A stretch of 64,000 nt of DNA, taken from the NCBI RefSeq assembly GCF_015218165.1, contig NZ_CP048659.1, forward strand, positions 62,001 through 126,000, in the 5' to 3' direction. The DNA comes from Acinetobacter piscicola. GTDB taxonomy: Bacteria > Pseudomonadota > Gammaproteobacteria > Pseudomonadales > Moraxellaceae. Below, piece by piece: positions 7,527 through 64,000 of the stretch (positions are counted from its first letter, which is position 1; every line of letters begins with the position of its first letter). The translations under genes were made by a program, and so were the position numbers. The notes beneath the pieces were generated by a model that had not been told where the DNA came from, searched no databases, and worked only from the letters and a program-made list of their open reading frames with translations.

Positions 7527-7627
7527 AGATGAAGGATTTATCTGAATAGCCGTAAAACCTTGCCCTTCAGAGCGGGGATATAAGGCTGCAATCCGCTAGT
7601 CCTCCTTATGGGGATTAGCTAAGATTG

Positions 7628-8071
7628 CTAATGCGGTGTCTGCTGACTCTCAATATATTGTTTAATAATTGAAATCGGAGCACCGCCACATGATGCAGCG
7701 AAGTAACTAGGTGACCACAGAGCATTTGCCCATAGCTTGTTTTTAATTTCGGGGTGTTTGGTTCGTAAAATTCGACTAGAAGCACCCTTTAAACTATTTA
7801 CTAAGCTAGAAATTGCTATTTTTGGCGGATAATTCACAAGTAAGTGAACATAGTCATGTTCTCCATCAAATTCCATCAATTCAGCTTCAAAGTCTAAGCA
7901 GACACGCTCAAATACTTCACGCATCGTTTCTTGCATTGCTTTGGTAAAAACATCTCTACGATATTTAGCTACAAAGACTAAATGTACATGCATATTAAAA
8001 ATACAATGGCGACCTGTTCTAATTTCTTGACTAGTACTCATACGCCAAATATATTTTAAGTATGAAGACAC
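7628..8071 (-). CDS. tnpA: IS200/IS605 Y1 transposase TnpA, copy 1 (HUH motif altered)
   Basis: Single-strand DNA transposase of 147 residues; the true start may be Met11 (8041). Family features: HVHLVFVAKYRR near the start, PPKIAISSLVNSLKG in the middle, and SIIKQYIESQ near the end with the probable catalytic Tyr. The expected HUH motif at residues 74-76 reads Y-V-H here, whereas copies 3 and 4 read H-V-H. Loss of the first metal-binding histidine suggests this copy is inactive. It overlaps tnpB by 10 bp at the 5' ends. Confidence 0.92.
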   Translation of the reverse strand: MSSYLKYIWRMSTSQEIRTGRHCIFNMHVHLVFVAKYRRDVFTKAMQETMREVFERVCLDFEAELMEFDGEHDYVHLLVNYPPKIAISSLVNSLKGASSRILRTKHPEIKNKLWANALWSPSYFAASCGGAPISIIKQYIESQQTPH

Positions 8072-9120
8072 TTAAATTACGCATAAAAGATAAACATTGC
8101 AAGATACTAGACCAACTAGCGTTAGAGGTAAACTTTGTTTGGAATTATGTCAATGATTTGTGTTTTAAACACTTGCAAAGAAAACAACAATTCTTTTCAG
8201 CATACGATATTGCAAAATATACAAAAGGTGCATCTAAGGAATGTAACTTGCACAGCCAAACCATACAGGCAGTTGCAGAAGAATTAGTGACAAGACGCAA
8301 GCAATTCAAGAAATCAAAATTAAAATGGCGTGTCAGCAATAAGAAATCAGCTAGACGCTCTTTAGGATGGATACCATTCAAGAAAGTAGCAATCAAATAT
8401 GCTGATGGCTATGTTCAATATGGTAAGCATCAATTCAAACTATGGGATAGTTACGGACTCAGCAAATACAATGTTAAAACAGGCTCATTTGTCGAGGATA
8501 GCCGTGGGCGTTGGTATGTTTGCCTTGTGATTGATTCAATTAAAACTGAGAAAACCACCGCTAAAACCTCGATTGGCATAGATTTAGGTTTAAAAGATTT
8601 AGCGACTTGTTCAGATGGCGTAAAGTTGAAAGCGCCTAAAATCTATCGGCAATATGAACAAAAACTTGGCATTGCACAACGTGCAAAAAATAAGAAACGT
8701 GTTAAAGCGATTCACGCCAAGATCAAAAATATTCGTCAAAACATGCTGCATCAATTCAGCCATAAATTGGTGAATGAACATGCAGCAATCTTCGTTGGCA
8801 ATGTGAATGCCAAAGCATTAGCACAGACTAGATTAGCTAAGTCAGTGTTAGATGCAAGTTGGACAACACTAAGAACCATGCTCAAGTATAAATGCGAGAA
8901 CGCAGGTGTATGGTATGAAGAAGTCAATGAAGCGTATACCACCCAAACGTGTTCGTGCTGTGGCTCACGCTTCAGTAGTCCGAAAGGTAGAGCAGGCTTA
9001 GGAATAAGAGAATGGCAGTGTTGTGAGTGTGGTAGCTCATGGGATCGGGATATAAATGCCGCACTGAATATTCTTGCGCTCGGACATGAGCGTCTCGCAG
9101 GAGGAATCTCCGTCCTTTAG
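8062..9120 (+). CDS. tnpB: TnpB RNA-guided nuclease-like protein, copy 1
   Basis: Protein of 352 residues. RuvC-I is IGIDLGLKDL with Asp174; the zinc finger is C297-x2-C300 and C320-x2-C323; RuvC-III is WDRDINAAL with Asp330. The stretch aligned to RuvC-II reads IFVGNVNAKAL, with Gly246 where a Glu is usual (typical IVVEDLN), so the catalytic Glu is missing or relocated, perhaps to E286, E287 or E290 in WYEEVNEAYTTQTC. Known family role: nuclease guided by an omega RNA made from the 3' end of the element. The reading frame is intact and near-identical in all complete copies here. Confidence 0.92.
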   Translation: MKTLKLRIKDKHCKILDQLALEVNFVWNYVNDLCFKHLQRKQQFFSAYDIAKYTKGASKECNLHSQTIQAVAEELVTRRKQFKKSKLKWRVSNKKSARRSLGWIPFKKVAIKYADGYVQYGKHQFKLWDSYGLSKYNVKTGSFVEDSRGRWYVCLVIDSIKTEKTTAKTSIGIDLGLKDLATCSDGVKLKAPKIYRQYEQKLGIAQRAKNKKRVKAIHAKIKNIRQNMLHQFSHKLVNEHAAIFVGNVNAKALAQTRLAKSVLDASWTTLRTMLKYKCENAGVWYEEVNEAYTTQTCSCCGSRFSSPKGRAGLGIREWQCCECGSSWDRDINAALNILALGHERLAGGISVL

Positions 9121-9185
9121 GTCGGGGAGGATGTCAAGGCATCGCATGGGAATTTTATCGACAATTGTCTAAACCATAGTAGACT

Positions 9186-21140: not shown

Positions 21141-21167
21141 ATTTCCCCTATATTGACTGCTTTACAT

Positions 21168-21956
21168 GGTGGTGTTTCAAAAAGTATGCTGCCATTAAAC
21201 GAATCCATTGTTAATATAAAAGAACACTAAATCAAAGGCTTTGAAATGATTGTCCAGATTTTTTGAGAAGTTACAACTCCTCCTAAACCCTCGTCTAATC
21301 CGATGGCGTAAGCGACAATTATTGCCCTCAATACCTACAGTGAAAAACTTACCTATCAACTGTTTACATTTTTTAAAGGTCGTAACAAAGCTATCCCAAT
21401 CGTCACTTGATATACGGGTATAGCTCACACCTAGCTGCTTTAATTTTAATTTAAGTCGTTTTGCTGTGGTTAAATCTCGTTTACCCCATACATAAGCAAC
21501 GATTTCACCTGTTTCTCGGTGATAGGCGTAAATCAACCATTCTTTATTTTGCTTATTACCGACAAAAGTCCAAAACTCATCTACTTCAATGGTTTCATAA
21601 TGAGTTTGCCGTGCTTGAAGTTGATAGTTTGATTGGCTGAGCGTACGTAAAACCTTACCAATACTCACTCGCTCAACTTTGGCAATGTCTCTAACACCAC
21701 TGCCTCGTACCATCAGATGTAGTATTTTACTTTTGATACCAAAGTGACAACCTTGGTAACTCAGTGCATGATCACCGATAAATTGACGTTTGCATATTTT
21801 GCATTGGTAATTTTGCTTACCATATAGTTTTATGCCATTTTTCTTTATACTGTCACTCAGGCAGGTAGGACATTTGATTTGTAGAGTTATTTGCATTTCC
21901 CTATAGTATCAAATTCTTACCTGTCTTTCTTTCAGCATACTTTTTGAAACACTACC
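21168..21956 (-). mobile_element. IS1-family insertion sequence, copy A (789 bp)
   Basis: Terminal inverted repeats GGTGGTGTTTCAAAAAGTATG and, at the other end, the complement of GGTAGTGTTTCAAAAAGTATG, flanked by an 8-bp target duplication CTTTACAT (21160-21167 and 21957-21964). It carries one transposase ORF. A second copy of exactly the same length lies at 61212-62000. The intact duplication and near identity point to recent insertion. Confidence 0.95.
21195..21896 (-). CDS. IS1-family transposase (single ORF)
   Basis: The 233 residues have an N-terminal zinc-finger region CPTCLSD...CKICKRQF (~9-40), a helix-turn-helix VRGSGVRDIAKVERVSIGKVLR (~68-90) and the DDE catalytic part with ETIEVDEFWTF, ISSDDWDSF and EGNNCRLRHRIRRGFRRSCNF. 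In classical IS1 this product needs an InsA-InsB' frameshift; here it is one continuous frame. It differs from copy B at residue 5 (Gln versus Glu). Confidence 0.93.
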   Translation of the reverse strand: MQITLQIKCPTCLSDSIKKNGIKLYGKQNYQCKICKRQFIGDHALSYQGCHFGIKSKILHLMVRGSGVRDIAKVERVSIGKVLRTLSQSNYQLQARQTHYETIEVDEFWTFVGNKQNKEWLIYAYHRETGEIVAYVWGKRDLTTAKRLKLKLKQLGVSYTRISSDDWDSFVTTFKKCKQLIGKFFTVGIEGNNCRLRHRIRRGFRRSCNFSKNLDNHFKAFDLVFFYINNGFV

Positions 21957-21990
21957 CTTTACATTTCTCCATTTGACATCCTCCCCCGAC

Positions 21991-23049
21991 CTAAAGGACG
22001 GAGATTCCTCCTGCGAGACGCTCATGTCCGAGCGCAAGAATATTCAGTGCGGCATTTATATCCCGATCCCATGAGCTACCACACTCACAACACTGCCATT
22101 CTCTTATTCCTAAGCCTGCTCTACCTTTCGGACTACTGAAGCGTGAGCCACAGCACGAACACGTTTGGGTGGTATACGCTTCATTGACTTCTTCATACCA
22201 TACACCTGCGTTCTCGCATTTATACTTGAGCATGGTTCTTAGTGTTGTCCAACTTGCATCTAGTACTGATTTAGCCAATCTAGTTTGTGCTAATGCTTTG
22301 GCATTCACATTGCCAACAAAGATTGCTGCATGTTCATTCACCAATTTATGGCTGAATTGATGCAGTATGTTTTGACGAATATTTTTGATCTTGGCGTGAA
22401 TCGCTTTAACACGTTTCTTATTTTTTGCACGTTGTGCAATGCCAAGTTTTTGTTCATATTGCCGATAGATTTTAGGCGCTTTCAATTTTACGCCATCTGA
22501 ACAAGTCACTAAATCTTTTAAACCTAAATCTATGCCAATTGAGGTTTTAGCGGTGGTTTTCTCAGTTTTAATTGAATCAACCACAAGGCAAACATACCAA
22601 TGCCCACGACTATCCTCGACAAACGAACCTGTTTTAACATTGTATTTGCTGAGTTCGTAACTATCCCATAGTTTGAATTGATGCTTACCATATTGAACAT
22701 AGCCATCAGCATATTTGATTGCTACTTTCTTGAATGGTATCCATCCTAAAGAGCGTCTAGCTGATTTCTTATTGCTAACACGCCATTTTAATTTTGCTTT
22801 CTTGAATTGCTTGCGTCTTGTCACTAATTCTTCTGCAACTGCCTGTATGGTTTGGCTGTGCAAGTTACATTCCTTGGATGCACCTTTTGTATATTTTGCA
22901 ATATCGTATGCTGAAAAGAATTGTTGTTTTCTTTGCAAGTGTTTAAAACACAAATCATTGACATAATTCCAAACAAAGTTTACCTCTAACGCTAGGTGGT
23001 CTAGCATCTTGCAATGCTTATCTTTTATGCGTAATTTAAGTGTCTTCAT
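21991..23049 (-). CDS. tnpB: TnpB RNA-guided nuclease-like protein, copy 2
   Basis: Full-length 352-residue frame, near-identical to copy 1. Differences include Ala181 to Val after RuvC-I (LKDLVTCSDG). Asp174, the CxxC zinc pairs and Asp330 are kept, and the RuvC-II position again reads VGNVN. It remains open although its partner tnpA is destroyed. Confidence 0.92.
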   Translation of the reverse strand: MKTLKLRIKDKHCKMLDHLALEVNFVWNYVNDLCFKHLQRKQQFFSAYDIAKYTKGASKECNLHSQTIQAVAEELVTRRKQFKKAKLKWRVSNKKSARRSLGWIPFKKVAIKYADGYVQYGKHQFKLWDSYELSKYNVKTGSFVEDSRGHWYVCLVVDSIKTEKTTAKTSIGIDLGLKDLVTCSDGVKLKAPKIYRQYEQKLGIAQRAKNKKRVKAIHAKIKNIRQNILHQFSHKLVNEHAAIFVGNVNAKALAQTRLAKSVLDASWTTLRTMLKYKCENAGVWYEEVNEAYTTQTCSCCGSRFSSPKGRAGLGIREWQCCECGSSWDRDINAALNILALGHERLAGGISVL

Positions 23050-23495
23050 ACTTAAAATATATTTGGCGTATGAGTACTAGTCAAGAAATTAGAACAGGTC
23101 GCCATTGTATTTTTAATATGCAAGTACATTTAGTCTTTGTGGCTAAATATCGTAGAGATTTTTTTACTAAAGCGATGCTCGGAACGATGCGTGAAGTATT
23201 TGAACGTGTCTGCTTAGACTTTGAAGCTGAGTTGGTGGAATTTGATGGTGAACATGATTATGTTCATTTACTTGTCAATTATCCGCCAAAAATAGCAATT
23301 TATAGCTTAGTGAATAGTTTAAAGGGTGCTTCCAGTCGAATTTTACGAACCACCCCCCGAAATTAAAAACAAGCTATGGGGAAGCTCTGTGGTCACCTAG
23401 TTACTTCGCTGCATCATGTGGCGGTGCACCAATTGGGATTATTAAACAATACATTCAGCATGAGTGTCACTGACACTTAAAAGACACCGCATTAG
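23040..23495 (+). pseudogene. tnpA: Decayed IS200/IS605 transposase tnpA, copy 2
   Basis: The frame stops after 108 residues at 23366 because of a 2-base loss near 23352 (CCACCCCCCGAAATT in place of CCAAACACCCCGAAATT). A second 2-base loss follows near 23380, and the 3' end after 23430 is rearranged, ending near CATTAG at 23490-23495. Residue 28 is Gln instead of His, and the HUH position reads Y-V-H. This copy cannot make an active transposase. Confidence 0.9.
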
Positions 23496-26889: not shown

Positions 26890-27477
26890 ATGCAATCGGG
26901 TTCACCATTCCAAGTTAAAGATGGTCAATTGATTGGTGCACGACAAGTACCGTCACCAAACTATAATCAACGTCCTGAAAATACTGAAATTCAGCTGATC
27001 GTGATTCATAATATCAGCTTGCCACCTTCGCAATTTGGTGGAGGTTATATTGAACAATTTTTTCAAAATCAATTGGATTGGTCAGTACATCCCTATTTTC
27101 AAAGCATTGAAGGGATGCAAGTTTCAGCACATTTACTGATTTTAAGAACAGGTGAAGTACTGCAATTTGTCAATTTTAAAGACCGTGCTTGGCATGCAGG
27201 ACGTTCAAGTTACTTGGGTAAAGTAGAATGCAATGATTATTCAATTGGCATTGAGCTCGAAGGGAGTGATGATTTAGATTTTGAAGATATTCAATATCAA
27301 ACATTGGCGCAAGTGGTTGCGACTTTACAAAAAGTTTATCCTAAAACAGATCAGCATTTAGCTGGGCATTCAGATATCGCACCACATCGTAAAACAGATC
27401 CTGGCCCGCATTTTCAATGGAATGAGTTTAGAGCATTGCTACATATAAGCAAAAGTAATCATTATTTATCCGTATAG
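26890..27477 (+). CDS. ampD: 1,6-anhydro-N-acetylmuramyl-L-alanine amidase AmpD
   Basis: Cytosolic zinc amidase of peptidoglycan recycling; its loss derepresses AmpC in many bacteria. The 195 residues have LIVIHNISLPP (zinc His, ~40), WHAGRSSYLGKVECNDYSIGIELEG (~104) and the zinc/catalytic HSDIAPHRKTDPGPHF (~165). IS605 copy 3 begins at 27470, inside the gene: the last two codons and the TAG stop come from the element. Joining the flanks restores TTA-TGA, so the ancestral protein ended two residues earlier. Catalytic residues are untouched. Confidence 0.95.
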   Translation: MQSGSPFQVKDGQLIGARQVPSPNYNQRPENTEIQLIVIHNISLPPSQFGGGYIEQFFQNQLDWSVHPYFQSIEGMQVSAHLLILRTGEVLQFVNFKDRAWHAGRSSYLGKVECNDYSIGIELEGSDDLDFEDIQYQTLAQVVATLQKVYPKTDQHLAGHSDIAPHRKTDPGPHFQWNEFRALLHISKSNHYLSV

Positions 27478-27555
27478 CCGTGAAACCTCGCCTTTTAGGG
27501 CGGGGATATAAGGCTGCAATCCGCTAGTTCTCCTTGTGGGGATTAGCTAGGATTG

Positions 27556-27999
27556 CTAATGCGGTGTCTGCTGACTCTCAATATATTGTTTAATAATTGA
27601 AATCGGAGCACCGCAACATGATGCAGCGAAGTAACTAGGTGACCACAGAGCATTTGCCCATAGCTTGTTTTTAATTTCGGGGTGTTTGGTTCGTAAAATT
27701 CGACTGGAAGCACCCTTTAGACTATTTACTAAGCTAGAAATTGCTATTTTTGGCGGATAATTGACAAGTAAATGAACATGATCATGTTCACCATCAAATT
27801 CCACCAACTCAGCTTCAAAGTCTAAGCAGACACGTTCAAATACTTCACGTATCGTTCCAAGCATCGCTTTAGTAAAAACATCTCGACGATATTTAGCCAC
27901 AAAGACTAAATGTACATGCATATTAAAAATACAATGGCGACCTGCTCTAATTTCTTGACTAGTACTCATACGCCAAATATATTTTAAGTATGAAGACAC
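27556..27999 (-). CDS. tnpA: IS200/IS605 Y1 transposase TnpA, copy 3 (intact HUH)
   Basis: 147 residues. The HUH motif at 74-76 reads H-V-H in GEHDHVHLLVNYPP, and the C-terminal IIKQYIESQ Tyr is present. One private change is AASCCGAP instead of AASCGGAP (~131). By sequence it is one of the two copies here that look catalytically competent. The probable start is Met11. Confidence 0.93.
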   Translation of the reverse strand: MSSYLKYIWRMSTSQEIRAGRHCIFNMHVHLVFVAKYRRDVFTKAMLGTIREVFERVCLDFEAELVEFDGEHDHVHLLVNYPPKIAISSLVNSLKGASSRILRTKHPEIKNKLWANALWSPSYFAASCCGAPISIIKQYIESQQTPH

Positions 28000-29048
28000 T
28001 TAAATTACGCATAAAAGATAAACATTGCAAGATGCTAGACCAACTAGCGTTAGAGGTAAACTTTGTCTGGAATTATGTTAATGATTTGTGTTTTAAACAC
28101 TTGCAAAGAAAACAACAATTCTTTTCAGCATACAATATTGCAAAATATACAAAAGGTGCATCCAAAGAATGTGACTTGCACAGCCAAACGATACAGGCAG
28201 TTACAGAAGAATTAGTGACAAGACGCAAGCAATTCAAGAAAGCAAAATTAAAATGGCGTGTTAGCAATAAGAAATCAGCTAGACGCTCTTTAGGATGGAT
28301 ACCATTCAAGAAAGTAGCAATCAAATATGCTGATGGCTATGTTCAATATGGTAAGCATCAATTCAAACTATGGGATAGTTACGGACTCAGCAAATACAAT
28401 GTTAAAACAGGCTCATTTGTCGAGGATAGCCGTGGGCGTTGGTATGTTTGCCTTGTGATTGATTCAATTAAAACTGAGAAAACCACCGCTAAAACCTCGA
28501 TTGGCATAGATTTAGGTTTAAAAGATTTAGCGACTTGTTCAGATGGCGTAAAGTTGAAAGCGCCTAAAATCTATCGGCAATATGAACAAAAACTTGGCAT
28601 TGCACAACGTGCAAAAAATAAGAAACGTGTTAAAGCGATTCACGCCAAGATCAAAAATATTCGTCAAAACATGCTGCATCAATTCAGCCATAAATTGGTG
28701 AATGAACATGCAGCAATCTTCGTTGGCAATGTGAATGCCAAAGCATTAGCACAGACTAGATTAGCTAAGTCAGTGTTAGATGCAAGTTGGACAACACTAA
28801 GAACCATGCTCAAGTATAAATGCGAGAACGCAGGTGTATGGTATGAAGAAGTCAATGAAGCGTATACCACCCAAACGTGTTCGTGCTGTGGCTCACGCTT
28901 CAGTAGTCCGAAAGGTAGAGCAGGCTTAGGAATAAGAGAATGGCAGTGTTGTGAGTGTGGTAGCTCATGGGATCGGGATATAAATGCCGCACTGAATATT
29001 CTTGCGCTCGGACATGAGCGTCTCGCAGGAGGAATCTCCGTCCTTTAG
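27990..29048 (+). CDS. tnpB: TnpB RNA-guided nuclease-like protein, copy 3
   Basis: 352 residues, differing from copy 1 at a few positions in the N-terminal third (for example NIAKYT for DIAKYT, ECDLHS for ECNLHS and AVTEEL for AVAEEL). Asp174, the CxxC/CxxC finger and Asp330 are present, and the RuvC-II position is Gly246. The 3' end and right-end hairpin match copy 1. Confidence 0.92.
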   Translation: MKTLKLRIKDKHCKMLDQLALEVNFVWNYVNDLCFKHLQRKQQFFSAYNIAKYTKGASKECDLHSQTIQAVTEELVTRRKQFKKAKLKWRVSNKKSARRSLGWIPFKKVAIKYADGYVQYGKHQFKLWDSYGLSKYNVKTGSFVEDSRGRWYVCLVIDSIKTEKTTAKTSIGIDLGLKDLATCSDGVKLKAPKIYRQYEQKLGIAQRAKNKKRVKAIHAKIKNIRQNMLHQFSHKLVNEHAAIFVGNVNAKALAQTRLAKSVLDASWTTLRTMLKYKCENAGVWYEEVNEAYTTQTCSCCGSRFSSPKGRAGLGIREWQCCECGSSWDRDINAALNILALGHERLAGGISVL

Positions 29049-29132
29049 GTCGGGGAGGATGTCAAGATTTTACAACGATATTTGTTTTGAGTTTCTTTAC
29101 AATAACGACTTTATTTTAACTAGGTAAATGCA

Positions 29133-32558: not shown

Positions 32559-32577
32559 GTTTGACATACTCCCCGAC

Positions 32578-33636
32578 CTAAAGGACGGGGATTCCTCCTG
32601 CGAGACGCTCATGTCCGAGCGCAAGAATATTCAGTGCGGAATTTATATCCCGATCCCATGAGCTACCACACTCACGACACTGCCATTCTCTTATTCCTAA
32701 ACCTGCTCTACCTTTCGGACTACTGGAGCGTGAGCCACAGCACGAACACGTTTGGGTGGTATACGCTTCATTGACTTCTTCATACCATACACCTGCGTTC
32801 TCGCATTTATACTTGAGCATGGTTCTTAGTGTTGTCCAACTTGCATCTAACACTGACTTAGCTAATCTAGTCTGTGCTAATGCTTTGGCATTCACATTGC
32901 CAACGAAGATTGCTGCATGTTCATTCACCAATTTATGGCTGAATTGATGCAGCATGTTTTGACGAATATTTTTGATCTTGGCGTGAATCGCTTTAACACG
33001 TTTCTTATTTTTTGCACGTTGTGCAATGCCAAGTTTTTGTTCATATTGCCGATAGATTTTAGGTGCTTTCAACTTTACGCCATCTGAACAAGTCGCTAAA
33101 TCTTTTAAACCTAAATCTATGCCAATCGAGGTTTTAGCGGTGGTTTTCTCAGTTTTAATTGAATCAACCACAAGGCAAACATACCAACGCCCACGGCTAT
33201 CCTCGACAAATGAGCCTGTTTTAACATTGTATTTGCTGAGTCCGTAACTATCCCATAGCTTGAATTGATGCTTACCATATTGAACATAGCCATCAGCATA
33301 TTTGATTGCTACTTTCTTGAATGGTATCCATCCTAAAGAGCGTCTAGCTGATTTTTTATTGCTGACACGCCATTTTAATTTTGCTTTCTTGAATTGCTTG
33401 CGTCTTGTCACTAATTCTTCTGCAACTGCCTGTATGGTTTGGCTGTGCAAGTTACATTCTTTGGATGCACCTTTTGTATATTTTGCAATATCGTATGCTG
33501 AAAAGAATTGTTGTTTTCTTTGCAAGTGTTTAAAACACAAATCATTGACATAATTCCAGACAAAGTTTACCTCTAACGCTAGTTGGTCTAGCATCTTGCA
33601 ATGTTTGTCTTTTATGCGTAATTTAAGTGTCTTCAT
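32578..33636 (-). CDS. tnpB: TnpB RNA-guided nuclease-like protein, copy 4
   Basis: 352 residues with several private substitutions around the zinc finger (GSRSSSPKG, WQCRECG, INSALNI, GGIPVL). Asp174, C297/C300/C320/C323 and Asp330 are kept; RuvC-II position Gly246. The flank beyond its right end (ACTTTGAGAGCTTTTT on its own strand) would be the guide. Confidence 0.92.
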   Translation of the reverse strand: MKTLKLRIKDKHCKMLDQLALEVNFVWNYVNDLCFKHLQRKQQFFSAYDIAKYTKGASKECNLHSQTIQAVAEELVTRRKQFKKAKLKWRVSNKKSARRSLGWIPFKKVAIKYADGYVQYGKHQFKLWDSYGLSKYNVKTGSFVEDSRGRWYVCLVVDSIKTEKTTAKTSIGIDLGLKDLATCSDGVKLKAPKIYRQYEQKLGIAQRAKNKKRVKAIHAKIKNIRQNMLHQFSHKLVNEHAAIFVGNVNAKALAQTRLAKSVLDASWTTLRTMLKYKCENAGVWYEEVNEAYTTQTCSCCGSRSSSPKGRAGLGIREWQCRECGSSWDRDINSALNILALGHERLAGGIPVL

Positions 33637-34070
33637 ACTTAAAATATATTTGGCGTATGAGTACTAGTCAAGAAATTAGAACAGGTCGCCATTGTATTTT
33701 TAATATGCATGTACATTTAGTCTTTGTAGCTAAATATCGTAGAGATGTTTTTACTAAAGCGATGCTCGGAACGATACGTAAAGTATTTGAACGTGTCTGC
33801 TTAGACTTTGAAGCTGAGTTGGTGGAATTTGATGGTGAACATGATCATGTTCATTTACTTGTCAATTATCCGCCAAAAATAGCAATTTATAGCTTAGTGA
33901 ATAGTTTAAAGGGTGCTTCCAGTCGAATTTTACGAACCAAACACCCCGAAATTAAAAACAAGCTATGGGCAAATGCTCTGTGGTCACCTAGTTACTTCGC
34001 TGCATCATGTGGCGGTGCTCCGATTTCAATCATTAAACAATATATTGAGAGTCAGCAGACGCCGCATTAG
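33627..34070 (+). CDS. tnpA: IS200/IS605 Y1 transposase TnpA, copy 4 (intact HUH)
   Basis: 147 residues; HUH at 74-76 is H-V-H, and the terminal IIKQYIESQ Tyr is present. Differs from copy 3 by a few residues (for example IRKVFER, IAIYSLV). With copy 3 it is the likely source of mobility for the whole family in this window. Confidence 0.93.
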   Translation: MSSYLKYIWRMSTSQEIRTGRHCIFNMHVHLVFVAKYRRDVFTKAMLGTIRKVFERVCLDFEAELVEFDGEHDHVHLLVNYPPKIAIYSLVNSLKGASSRILRTKHPEIKNKLWANALWSPSYFAASCGGAPISIIKQYIESQQTPH

Positions 34071-34166
34071 CAATCCTAGCTAATCCTCACAAGGAGGACT
34101 AGCGGATTGCAGCCTTATATCCCCACCCTGAAGGGCAAGGTTTTACGGCTATTCGGATAAATAAAA

Positions 34167-60346: not shown

Positions 60347-61211
60347 AGGTGGTCCCACTTGTTTGAACAACTAAAAGCATATTTATAAGTGATATTCCGC
60401 TCTAGTTAAGCCACCTTGTTTTGTTGGGGTAGCTGATCATAGTAAAACTCATTTGGTGTCATTTTGTCTAGACTCGAATGAGGTCGTTTCAGATTATAAA
60501 ACTCAAAATATGCACTCAATTGCTTTTTCGCATCTGTGACACTGCTATAAGCTTTGAGATACACCTCTTCATATTTAACGCTCCGCCATAATCGTTCAAC
60601 CATCACATTATCTACCCATCGACCTTTACCATCCATACTGATTTGAATGCCATTTGATTTCAATACATCAATAAATGCATCACTGGTGAACTGACTGCCT
60701 TGGTCTGTATTCAATATTTCAGGTGATCCATATTTTTCAATCGCTTCATTTAAAGCCGAAATACAAAAATCCACCTCCATACTAATCGATACCCTATGCG
60801 CAAGTACCTTGCGGCTATGCCAATCAATCACAGCACATAAATAAACAAAGCCTTTTGCCATAGGGATATACGTTATATCCGTAGGCCACACTTGATTACT
60901 GCGCTGAATTGCCAATCCTTTGAGCAGATATGGATATTTACTGTGAGCTTGATTAGCCTGGCTTAAATTTGGTTTGCAATATAACGCCTGAATACCCATT
61001 TTCTTCATTAAAGTACGTGTATGACGTCGTCCTATATGATGTCCTTGACGATTCAACAAATTACGCATCCTACGGCTACCTGCAAAAGGATATTGCATAT
61101 GTAATTCATCAATACACCGCATCAGCTTCAGATCTGATGAGCTAACAGGTTTTGGGCGATAATAATAACAACCACGAGAGACTTTCAGCAGCTTAGCTTG
61201 CTTAGATACTG

Positions 61212-62000
61212 GGTAGTGTTTCAAAAAGTATGCTGAAAGAAAGACAGGTAAGAATTTGATACTATAGGGAAATGCAAATAACTCTAGAAATCAAATGTCC
61301 TACCTGCCTGAGTGACAGTATAAAGAAAAATGGCATAAAACTATATGGTAAGCAAAATTACCAATGCAAAATATGCAAACGTCAATTTATCGGTGATCAT
61401 GCACTGAGTTACCAAGGTTGTCACTTTGGTATCAAAAGTAAAATACTACATCTGATGGTACGAGGCAGTGGTGTTAGAGACATTGCCAAAGTTGAGCGAG
61501 TGAGTATTGGTAAGGTTTTACGTACGCTCAGCCAATCAAACTATCAACTTCAAGCACGGCAAACTCATTATGAAACCATTGAAGTAGATGAGTTTTGGAC
61601 TTTTGTCGGTAATAAGCAAAATAAAGAATGGTTGATTTACGCCTATCACCGAGAAACAGGTGAAATCGTTGCTTATGTATGGGGTAAACGAGATTTAACC
61701 ACAGCAAAACGACTTAAATTAAAATTAAAGCAGCTAGGTGTGAGCTATACCCGTATATCAAGTGACGATTGGGATAGCTTTGTTACGACCTTTAAAAAAT
61801 GTAAACAGTTGATAGGTAAGTTTTTCACTGTAGGTATTGAGGGCAATAATTGTCGCTTACGCCATCGGATTAGACGAGGGTTTAGGAGGAGTTGTAACTT
61901 CTCAAAAAATCTGGACAATCATTTCAAAGCCTTTGATTTAGTGTTCTTTTATATTAACAATGGATTCGTTTAATGGCAGCATACTTTTTGAAACACCACC
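61212..62000 (+). mobile_element. IS1-family insertion sequence, copy B (789 bp)
   Basis: Same ends and length as copy A; 8-bp target duplication AGATACTG at 61204-61211 and 62001-62008, inside the IS3 orfB. It is the youngest layer of this IS nest. Confidence 0.95.
61272..61973 (+). CDS. IS1-family transposase (single ORF), copy B
   Basis: 233 residues, differing from copy A only by Glu for Gln at residue 5. Zinc-finger CPTCLSD/CKICKRQF, helix-turn-helix and DDE segments are all intact. Confidence 0.93.
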   Translation: MQITLEIKCPTCLSDSIKKNGIKLYGKQNYQCKICKRQFIGDHALSYQGCHFGIKSKILHLMVRGSGVRDIAKVERVSIGKVLRTLSQSNYQLQARQTHYETIEVDEFWTFVGNKQNKEWLIYAYHRETGEIVAYVWGKRDLTTAKRLKLKLKQLGVSYTRISSDDWDSFVTTFKKCKQLIGKFFTVGIEGNNCRLRHRIRRGFRRSCNFSKNLDNHFKAFDLVFFYINNGFV

Positions 62001-62029
62001 AGATACTGAAATCTGAAGTGAGTCGTCGA

Positions 62030-62335: not shown

Positions 62336-62418
62336 AAAATACTCCATATATTGATGTTTATAACATCATTTGAGGAGCAGAATATCACTTATAGCAGTTG
62401 TTCAAATTTCTGGATCCA

Positions 62419-63175
62419 CCTCTGGGAATACTTTCTTTCAACCAATAATCAAAAATTGGACGAGCAACTTTGGCAGCAGCACTACCACTGCGTCCATTCT
62501 CTAAAATAATGGCAAGAACAATTTGAGGGTTATCCGCAGGAGCAAAGCCAATAAATAGAGCATGATCGTAATGCCGTTCAATGAGTAAGGCTTCATTGTA
62601 GTGTTTGCCCTGTGCAATACTTTTAACTTGGGCTGTACCTGTTTTTCCTGCAATTTGATATTGTAGTCCCGACTTGATACCTTGACCTGTACCAGACTGA
62701 ATCACATCAATCATGGCGTGATGCATTTTTACCCAATCGTTAGGGGTGCCATTAAAGAGAATTTTACCATCTGTATCATGGTGGATTGGGTAGGGTGTTG
62801 AACCTTTACTTTCTTTAAGTAAATGAGGGGTAATATGCTTACCAGAATTGGCAACGATTGCTGTCGAAAGGGCTAATTGTAATGGTGTAGCGGTGAATGC
62901 CCCCTGACCAATACTTACGGAAATTGTTTCACCCATTAACCATTTTGTCCCACGGGTTCGCATTTTCCATTCGGGTGATGGATATAATCCCGAACCTTCA
63001 TAAGGTAAGTCAATTCCTGTTTTTTCACCAAAGCCAAACTGGGTCATCCATTTGTACATATTGTCGATACCCATTTGATAAGACAATATATAAAAATAGG
63101 TATCACTAGACTGTGTGATCGCTTTATGTAAATCGACAATGCCATGGCCAGATTTTTTCCAATCACGAAATTTAT
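62419..63175 (-). pseudogene. mrdA: Internal fragment of mrdA (penicillin-binding protein 2)
   Basis: Transpeptidase of rod-shape peptidoglycan synthesis; only its C-terminal half is here. Seen: LHKAITQSSDTYFYI (SxD motif), GIDLPYEGSGLYPS, VSIGQGAFTATPLQLA, and AGKTGTAQVKS (KTG motif). At the 3' side an IS3 end replaces the last ~15-20 residues (frame continues PRGGSRNLNN into the IS). At the 5' side IS605 copy 5 starts at 63176, before the SxxK serine region. As drawn it cannot make PBP2. Confidence 0.9.
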
Positions 63176-63261
63176 CTGAATAGCCGTAAAACCTTGCCCT
63201 TCAGGGCGGGGATATAAGGCTGCAATCCGCTAGTCCTCCTTGTGGGGATTAGCTAGGATTG

Positions 63262-63705
63262 CTAATGCGGTGTCTGCTGACTCTCAATATATTGTTTAAT
63301 AATTGAAATCGGAGCACCGCCACATGATGCAGCGAAGTAACTAGGTGACCACAGAGCATTTACCCATAGCTTGTTTTTAATTTCGGGGTGTTTGGTTCGT
63401 AAAATTCGACTAGAAGCACCCTTTAAACTATTTACTAAGCTAGAAATTGCTATTTTTGGCGGATAATTCACAAGTAAGTGAACATAGTCATGTTCTCCAT
63501 CAAATTCCATCAATTCAGCTTCAAAGTCTAAGCAGACACGCTCAAATACTTCACGCATCGTTTCTTGCATTGCTTTGGTAAAAACATCTCTACGATATTT
63601 AGCTACAAAGACTAAATGTACATGCATATTAAAAATACAATGGCGACCTGTTCTAATTTCTTGACTAGTACTCATACGCCAAATATATTTTAAGTATGAA
63701 GACAC
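63262..63705 (-). CDS. tnpA: IS200/IS605 Y1 transposase TnpA, copy 5 (HUH motif altered)
   Basis: 147 residues, differing from copy 1 by one residue seen (KLWVNALW for KLWANALW). HUH position reads Y-V-H, as in copies 1 and 2, so activity is doubtful; the C-terminal Tyr segment is intact. Confidence 0.92.
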   Translation of the reverse strand: MSSYLKYIWRMSTSQEIRTGRHCIFNMHVHLVFVAKYRRDVFTKAMQETMREVFERVCLDFEAELMEFDGEHDYVHLLVNYPPKIAISSLVNSLKGASSRILRTKHPEIKNKLWVNALWSPSYFAASCGGAPISIIKQYIESQQTPH

Positions 63706-64000
63706 TTAAATTACGCATAAAAGATAAACATTGCAAGATACTAGACCAACTAGCGTTAGAGGTAAACTTTGTTTGGAATTATGTCAATGATTTGTGTTTT
63801 AAACACTTGCAAAGAAAACAACAATTCTTTTCAGCATACGATATTGCAAAATATACAAAAGGTGCATCTAAGGAATGTAACTTGCACAGCCAAACCATAC
63901 AGGCAGTTGCAGAAGAATTAGTGACAAGACGCAAGCAATTCAAGAAATCAAAATTAAAATGGCGTGTCAGCAATAAGAAATCAGCTAGACGCTCTTTAGG
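63696..64000 (+). CDS. tnpB: TnpB RNA-guided nuclease-like protein, copy 5, N-terminal part
   Basis: Only the first ~100 residues are in the window and they match copy 1, including KKSKLKWRVSNKKSARRS. The catalytic domain lies beyond the end. Confidence 0.9.
   Translation, partial: MKTLKLRIKDKHCKILDQLALEVNFVWNYVNDLCFKHLQRKQQFFSAYDIAKYTKGASKECNLHSQTIQAVAEELVTRRKQFKKSKLKWRVSNKKSARRSL

What the first reader, a model, noticed from the sequence alone, without database searches (positions are those of the whole stretch)
8062..9120. TnpB lacks the glutamate expected at the usual RuvC-II position in all four complete copies
RuvC-I Asp174, the CxxC/CxxC finger and RuvC-III Asp330 are conserved, but the strand that usually reads VVEDLN reads FVGNVN (Gly246, Asn247). 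Either this lineage uses another acidic residue (E286, E287 or E290 in WYEEVNEAYTTQ) or it is a nuclease-deficient, binding-only TnpB. From memory, relocated RuvC-II glutamates have been described in some TnpB groups, and nuclease-dead TnpB derivatives can act as RNA-guided repressors. The near identity of the copies shows it is not a chance mutation in one.
Basis: partly seen in the sequence, partly recalled or inferred. Interest (0 to 1): 0.7.

Follow-up and report, generated by a model that had tools for sequence, protein, structure and literature searches.

The report
Transposon nuclease with relocated catalytic glutamate
The transposon-encoded TnpB protein really lacks a glutamate at the usual place, but it belongs to an already described group in which the glutamate sits about 44 residues further along, so it is most likely an ordinary working RNA-guided DNA cutter.

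Summary
All four complete TnpB copies in the window read FVG246N where ISDra2 TnpB has its RuvC-II glutamate; HH profile alignment agrees. The residue is not lost but moved: E290 lies six residues before the first CxxC of the zinc finger. This is the 'Ealt' position of Yoon et al. 2023 (PMC10711439), and the protein belongs with the D-Phi-G, Ealt TnpBs. In 157 sequences without the canonical Glu, the E290 column is E in 153 (D 1, G 1, gap 2). The element has TnpA, precise ends (TTTAT| and TCAA|) and a covarying omega-RNA scaffold. Four of four tested guides lack a TTTAT-flanked target at 2 or fewer mismatches in the genome. This fits a homing nuclease better than a host-gene repressor. Nety et al. 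2023 (PMC10278001) name one active RuvC-II-rearranged (RII-r5) TnpB. I could not predict the structure (queue full at all 21 attempts) or test cleavage. New member of a known kind; low interest.

The parts
7542..9137 (+). IS200/IS605 element, copy 1 (1596 bp), left end to right end
   Evidence: shared ends of the copies, TTTAT| and TCAA|
7537..7541 (+). TTTAT flanking the left end: target site and probable TAM
   Evidence: the same 5-mer in front of all five left ends in the window; that it is the TAM is inferred
7628..8071 (-). tnpA, Y1 transposase of copy 1; residue 74, first His of HUH, is Tyr
   Evidence: Pfam Y1_Tnp 1.8e-43; residue 74
8062..9120 (+). tnpB, 352 aa, Ealt type
   Evidence: NF040570 250 bits
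8581..8583 (+). RuvC-I Asp174
   Evidence: D in 157 of 157 non-canonical rows
8797..8799 (+). Gly246 in the canonical RuvC-II Glu position
8929..8931 (+). Glu290, relocated RuvC-II glutamate (Ealt), six residues before CxxC
8950..8961 (+). zinc finger CxxC, C297 and C300
9019..9030 (+). zinc finger CxxC, C320 and C323
9049..9051 (+). RuvC-III Asp330
9020..9137 (+). predicted omega-RNA scaffold overlapping the end of tnpB (5' limit chosen by me)
   Evidence: covariation on 24 distinct sequences
9138..9157 (+). predicted guide of copy 1 (outside the element; 20 nt assumed)
   Evidence: conservation stops after TCAA
21973..23580 (-). element copy 2; tnpB 21991-23049, tnpA frameshifted
27470..29065 (+). 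element copy 3; tnpB 27990-29048, tnpA 27556-27999 with intact HUH
32561..34156 (-). element copy 4; tnpB 32578-33636, tnpA 33627-34070 with intact HUH
63176..64000 (+). element copy 5, cut by the window end

Best explanation
This is the TnpB of a multi-copy IS200/IS605 element in an Acinetobacter-type genome. It belongs to the published group of TnpBs with a rearranged RuvC-II. The catalytic triad is D174, E290, D330: the glutamate has left the usual strand (now Gly246) and sits six residues before the zinc finger. TnpB should bind the omega-RNA made from the 3' end of its own gene and the right end, read a TTTAT TAM, and cut DNA that matches the guide, which is the sequence just right of the element. 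It thus cuts vacated copies of the insertion site so that repair restores the element. Shown here: the residue exchange, its conservation, the element ends, the RNA covariation, and the lack of TTTAT-flanked targets for four guides. Inferred: that E290 binds the metal, that TTTAT is the TAM, and that cleavage takes place.
For: G246 occupies the canonical column. E290 is seven before C297, i.e. ExxxxxxCxxC, the position called Ealt in PMC10711439. Non-canonical rows: column 290 E in 153 of 157, D 1, G 1, gap 2; canonical rows: E in 0 of 18. Codon 290 is GAA in 117 and GAG in 36, so the residue and not the codon is kept. The acidic positions kept in at least 146 of 157 rows are D174, D146, D264, E290 and D330. 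Ealt and Ecan are separated by one branch, 100/100 support, one change, 0 of 500 shuffles as low. The omega-RNA scaffold covaries: 17 of 34 pairs with two-sided changes against 7.4 in shuffles; helix 3 is 100% paired. The right end is conserved up to TCAA in 108 of 117 hits and variable beyond. One RII-r5 TnpB is active in a TAM screen (PMC10278001).
Against: No structure was obtained, so the entry of E290 into the active site is not shown here. E287 is also invariant among the 74 close relatives. Nety et al. found 27 of 59 orthologs of all clades active and, in the passages I saw, name one active RII-r5 ortholog and say that several orthologs process omega-RNA without showing activity; I cannot say whether this TnpB is RII-r3 or RII-r5. 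The published search pattern for Ealt proteins does not match this family in its outer spacings, 0 of 157. Most relatives lack a TnpA-like ORF in the fetched stretch (137 of 157). The right-end RNA of one copy folds no better than shuffles.
Confidence: 0.88

Rival explanations
1. Nuclease-dead TnpB that only binds DNA, for instance as an RNA-guided repressor like TldR.
For: The canonical Glu is absent in every copy. Only 20 of 157 loci of the wider family hold a TnpA-like ORF of 100 aa or more, so most members look tnpB-only, as an exapted gene could be. At exactly 3 mismatches four further sites exist for the four guides, one of them with intact TTTAT.
Against: D174 and D330 are kept and a Glu stands at the published alternative position. 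Copies are many and the sequence right of the element varies from locus to locus. The four guides tested have no TTTAT-flanked match with 2 or fewer mismatches in the 4.28 Mb genome.
Confidence: 0.06
2. The RuvC-II acid is E287 (or E286) and not E290.
For: E287 is E in 74 of 74 close relatives.
Against: In the wider set E287 is E in 134 of 155 (V 11, I 4 and others) and E286 in 95, against 153 of 155 for E290. E290, not E287, is at the published Ealt spacing.
Confidence: 0.04
3. Alignment error: another Glu is the canonical one.
For: None found.
Against: HMMER and HH alignments agree on G246, the MAFFT alignment has E in this column for 18 canonical rows, and no E stands between F244 and E279 in the protein.
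Confidence: 0.02

Closest known systems
D-Phi-G, Ealt TnpBs (Yoon et al. 2023, NAR, PMC10711439; passages and sections 23 and 25 read)
   Same: DLG in RuvC-I and Glu six residues before the zinc finger; separated from canonical TnpBs in a tree
   Different: Spacing D-x-G to E is 113 and the loop between the CxxC pairs is 19, outside the published pattern (120-160 as I read the printed '120160', and 12-18), so that pattern would miss this family: 0 of 157
TnpB clades RII-r3 and RII-r5 (Nety et al. 2023, CRISPR J, PMC10278001; passages read)
   Same: TnpB with a rearranged RuvC-II; one RII-r5 member active
   Different: Which of the two this is could not be decided; the classification paper I looked for (PNAS 2023, DOI recalled) is not held
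ISDra2 TnpB (PDB 8BF8, 8H1J)
   Same: RuvC-I, RuvC-III and zinc finger by alignment; omega-RNA at the right end and IS200/IS605 context (recalled, and abstracts listed)
   Different: canonical RuvC-II Glu; chain of 408 residues
Fanzor and pro-Fanzor
   Same: Ealt position
   Different: DPG in RuvC-I, IS607 or eukaryotic transposons (PMC10711439); here DLG and a Y1 TnpA. One of 157 family rows does match a relaxed DPG pattern

Membership tests
RNA-guided TnpB (NF040570) | profile match above the curated cut-off | tested here: met
   250 bits against 100
RNA-guided TnpB (NF040570) | RuvC-I Asp, RuvC-III Asp, CxxC/CxxC finger | tested here: met
RNA-guided TnpB (NF040570) | Glu in the canonical RuvC-II position | tested here: not met
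   G246; not required of the rearranged clades described in PMC10278001
RNA-guided TnpB (NF040570) | omega-RNA from the right end | tested here: met
   covariation and sharp boundary; transcription not tested; single-sequence fold not better than shuffles
RNA-guided TnpB (NF040570) | RNA-guided DNA cleavage | not testable with these tools
   needs an assay
Ealt TnpB (D-Phi-G) | Glu six residues before the zinc finger | tested here: met
   E290 AYTTQT C297
Ealt TnpB (D-Phi-G) | hydrophobic residue after RuvC-I Asp, then Gly | tested here: met
   D174-L-G
Ealt TnpB (D-Phi-G) | published search pattern with its spacings | tested here: not met
   0 of 157; relaxed spacing 132 of 157 and 0 of 18 canonical rows. 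The pattern was a search filter, not a definition of the group
Ealt TnpB (D-Phi-G) | Glu in the active site | not tested
   structure prediction was not accepted at any of 21 attempts
pro-Fanzor / Fanzor | DPG in RuvC-I | tested here: not met
   DLG
TldR | loss of the nuclease triad (recalled) | tested here: not met
   D174, E290 and D330 kept, if E290 is accepted as the third residue
TldR | guide that targets a host gene (recalled; one abstract in the listing) | tested here: not met
   four guides, no TTTAT-flanked site at 2 or fewer mismatches; fifth guide not tested
IS200/IS605 element | Y1 HUH TnpA next to TnpB | tested here: met
   Y1_Tnp 1.8e-43; HUH intact in copies 3 and 4 only
RII-r3 / RII-r5 | place in the reference tree | not tested
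   reference alignment not held

The most novel reading that the evidence does not exclude
A TnpB lineage spread through Acinetobacter that keeps its RNA guidance but has turned into a binding-only or otherwise non-cutting protein, with E290 kept for another purpose such as omega-RNA processing.
Probability: 0.06. Interest if true: 0.6.

Novelty: new member of a known kind. Interest (0 to 1): 0.2.

Why it matters
It makes it very likely that the missing glutamate is the known relocation and not loss of function. It also shows that a proteobacterial family of this type falls outside the published search pattern because of its spacing. The family gives compact (352 aa) candidates for testing whether the moved glutamate lowers collateral ssDNA cutting, as Yoon et al. 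suggest for pro-Fanzors and Fanzors.

Tried and rejected

Rejected: E286 or E287 as the moved acid; binding-only TnpB; alignment error. An early argument of mine, that the presence of TnpA speaks against co-option, was weakened because most relatives lack a TnpA-like ORF in the fetched stretch (137 of 157; stretches of 3 to 6 kb, search with this TnpA only, so other transposases would be missed).

Led nowhere: the empty site of copy 1 in relatives is too diverged to read the junction base by base, although three of the 10 loci from other genomes align across it. The fold of the single right-end RNA is not better than shuffles (z -0.83); only covariation supports it. RNAalifold prefers another partner for the last strand, and my helix 1 is paired in only 65.4% of cells. 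Passages of PMC10432273 and PMC11423790 had nothing on the moved glutamate under the terms that I tried.

Rows dropped: one search left out 29 partial ORFs; one search dropped 33 short and 22 duplicate ORFs of 230. Among the 157 are five rows from the window's own genome, and two distant rows (L124, L125) whose alignment is doubtful.

Full report
What was claimed.

The ORF, the copies and the residue numbers are correct. The protein matches the RNA-guided TnpB model NF040570 with 250 bits against a cut-off of 100 and Pfam OrfB_IS605 and the TNB finger domain. HMMER places G246 in the column of the ISDra2 glutamate. An HH alignment of 147 sequences of this type to 18 canonical TnpBs gives the same register, IFVG against YAVE, and puts E290 opposite an Arg of the leading canonical sequence.

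The glutamate has moved. E290 stands six residues before C297. Yoon et al. (PMC10711439; sections 23 and 25 and passages read) define this position as Ealt, against Ecan about 50 residues before the finger, and describe two Ealt clades, D-Phi-G and DPG. Here RuvC-I is DLG. Nety et al. (PMC10278001, passages) describe RuvC-II-rearranged clades RII-r3 and RII-r5, expect no inactivation a priori, find 27 of 59 orthologs of all clades active, and name one RII-r5 member as active.

Conservation. In 74 distinct relatives with at least 300 aligned residues (from 99 loci, own genome included; 29 partial ORFs left out): D174 74, G246 74, E287 74, E290 73 (D in one), D330 69 of 74 (three gaps, one Y, one N). 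In the wider set of 175 ORFs (230 hits, 33 short and 22 duplicates dropped), 157 lack the canonical Glu; their column 290 is E in 153, D 1, G 1, gap 2. Of the 18 with the canonical Glu none has E there; they have A, P, F or W seven before the finger. The set is not a random sample: most rows were found with this protein or its profile, the canonical rows mainly with the general TnpB model, and five rows come from the window's own genome. E287 falls to 134 of 155 and E286 to 95, which singles out E290. Codon 290 is GAA in 117 and GAG in 36. On a tree of 86 representatives, 75 Ealt and 10 Ecan rows (one row in neither group) lie on two sides of one branch with 100/100 support; Fanzors were not included. 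The window's own genome also carries canonical TnpBs: L007 with AVEDLG, and a 183-aa fragment L008 with VVEDLK and Pro at the Ealt place.

The element. Five copies have TTTAT just left of the left end; the four right ends in the window finish in TCAA, and so does that of copy 5 in the genome. In 117 right-end hits from the window and fetched loci (some of them beside canonical-type TnpBs, such as L109 and L131), the last 11 bases each have the same base in 102 or more, and the next 12 positions have at most 43 alike; 108 of 117 end in TCAA. The right end folds into hairpins that covary in 24 distinct sequences: 17 of 34 pairs show changes on both sides (shuffles 7.4, 0 of 500 as high), helix 3 is paired in all cells and helix 5 in 93.5%, but helix 1 only in 65.4%. 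RNAalifold gives 22 pairs, 12 with two-sided changes, and another partner for the terminal strand. The right-end RNA of one copy alone folds no better than shuffles.

Targets. TTTAT plus the first 15 guide bases of copies 1 to 4 was sought in the 4.28 Mb genome with up to 3 mismatches. No guide has a match at 2 or fewer. Each finds its own flank at 3 mismatches, because GTCAA stands there in place of TTTAT, so the own occupied site would be spared. The other hits are 0, 1, 1 and 2, all with exactly 3 mismatches; one of the four, has TTTAT intact (reversed-pattern controls 0 each). This is what a homing nuclease should show, and there is no sign of a host gene as target. The fifth guide was not tested.

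Mechanism. The most likely reading is an active RNA-guided nuclease with the triad D174, E290, D330 that cuts vacated insertion sites. Cleavage, the TAM and the place of E290 in the site are inferred.

What is different. The published Ealt pattern needs 120-160 residues between D-x-G and E (as I read the printed '120160') and 12-18 between the CxxC pairs; here the numbers are 113 and 19, and 0 of 157 sequences match, against 132 of 157 with relaxed spacing. This looks like a compact family that the published pattern search would not have listed. I did not see their supplementary tables, so I cannot say that it is absent from their tree.

Verdict. Observation confirmed, first alternative supported, dead-nuclease alternative unlikely. 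A new member of a known kind.

Noticed in passing
window 9066-9150 (+); L012, L055, L064, L067, L121 at their tnpB right ends: Rfam HgcC (RF00062) matches weakly at the right end in the window (18.1 bits, E 0.25) and in 5 of 10 relatives (22.4-31.1 bits, best E 0.0023), all below the gathering score of 50. In T. kodakarensis HgcC1-3 are transcribed from within transposase genes, HgcC4 and 5 are not (PMC4247193, passages). HgcC may thus be a TnpB omega-RNA family; no paper of the library holds both words TnpB and HgcC.
   Followed up: partly
tnpA at 7628-8071, 23040-23366, 63262-63705 against 27556-27999 and 33627-34070: Residue 74 of TnpA, the first His of the HUH motif (motif recalled), is Tyr in copies 1, 2 and 5 and His in copies 3 and 4; copy 2 is also frameshifted. 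Perhaps only copies 3 and 4 still move the family.
   Followed up: partly
window 7542-64000 (G000:C1:70062-126751): The five full copies of this TnpB found in the 4.28 Mb genome have their tnpB genes within 57 kb (random placement about 1.4e-7), around what looks like a surface-polysaccharide locus (ten proteins scanned). Local hopping or selection is possible.
   Followed up: no
Ealt loci: Only 20 of 157 loci hold a TnpA-like ORF of 100 aa or more in the fetched stretch, so most elements of this family look tnpB-only and may be moved in trans.
   Followed up: partly
21167-21957 and 61211-62001: Inverted copies (791 nt, reported as 100% complementary) of an IS1-type transposase element (first copy scanned) enclose about 39 kb, including the polysaccharide genes.
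   Followed up: no
plasmid NZ_CP055280.1, 2630-2857: A 6.8 kb Acinetobacter plasmid matches only the right end of this element (88.8% identity, no listed gene under it in an incomplete gene table), perhaps a lone omega-RNA left from a decayed copy.
   Followed up: no
62385-63086 (-): A 233-aa ORF matches the Pfam transpeptidase domain (3.4e-38); penicillin-binding protein or class D beta-lactamase kin, not examined.
   Followed up: no
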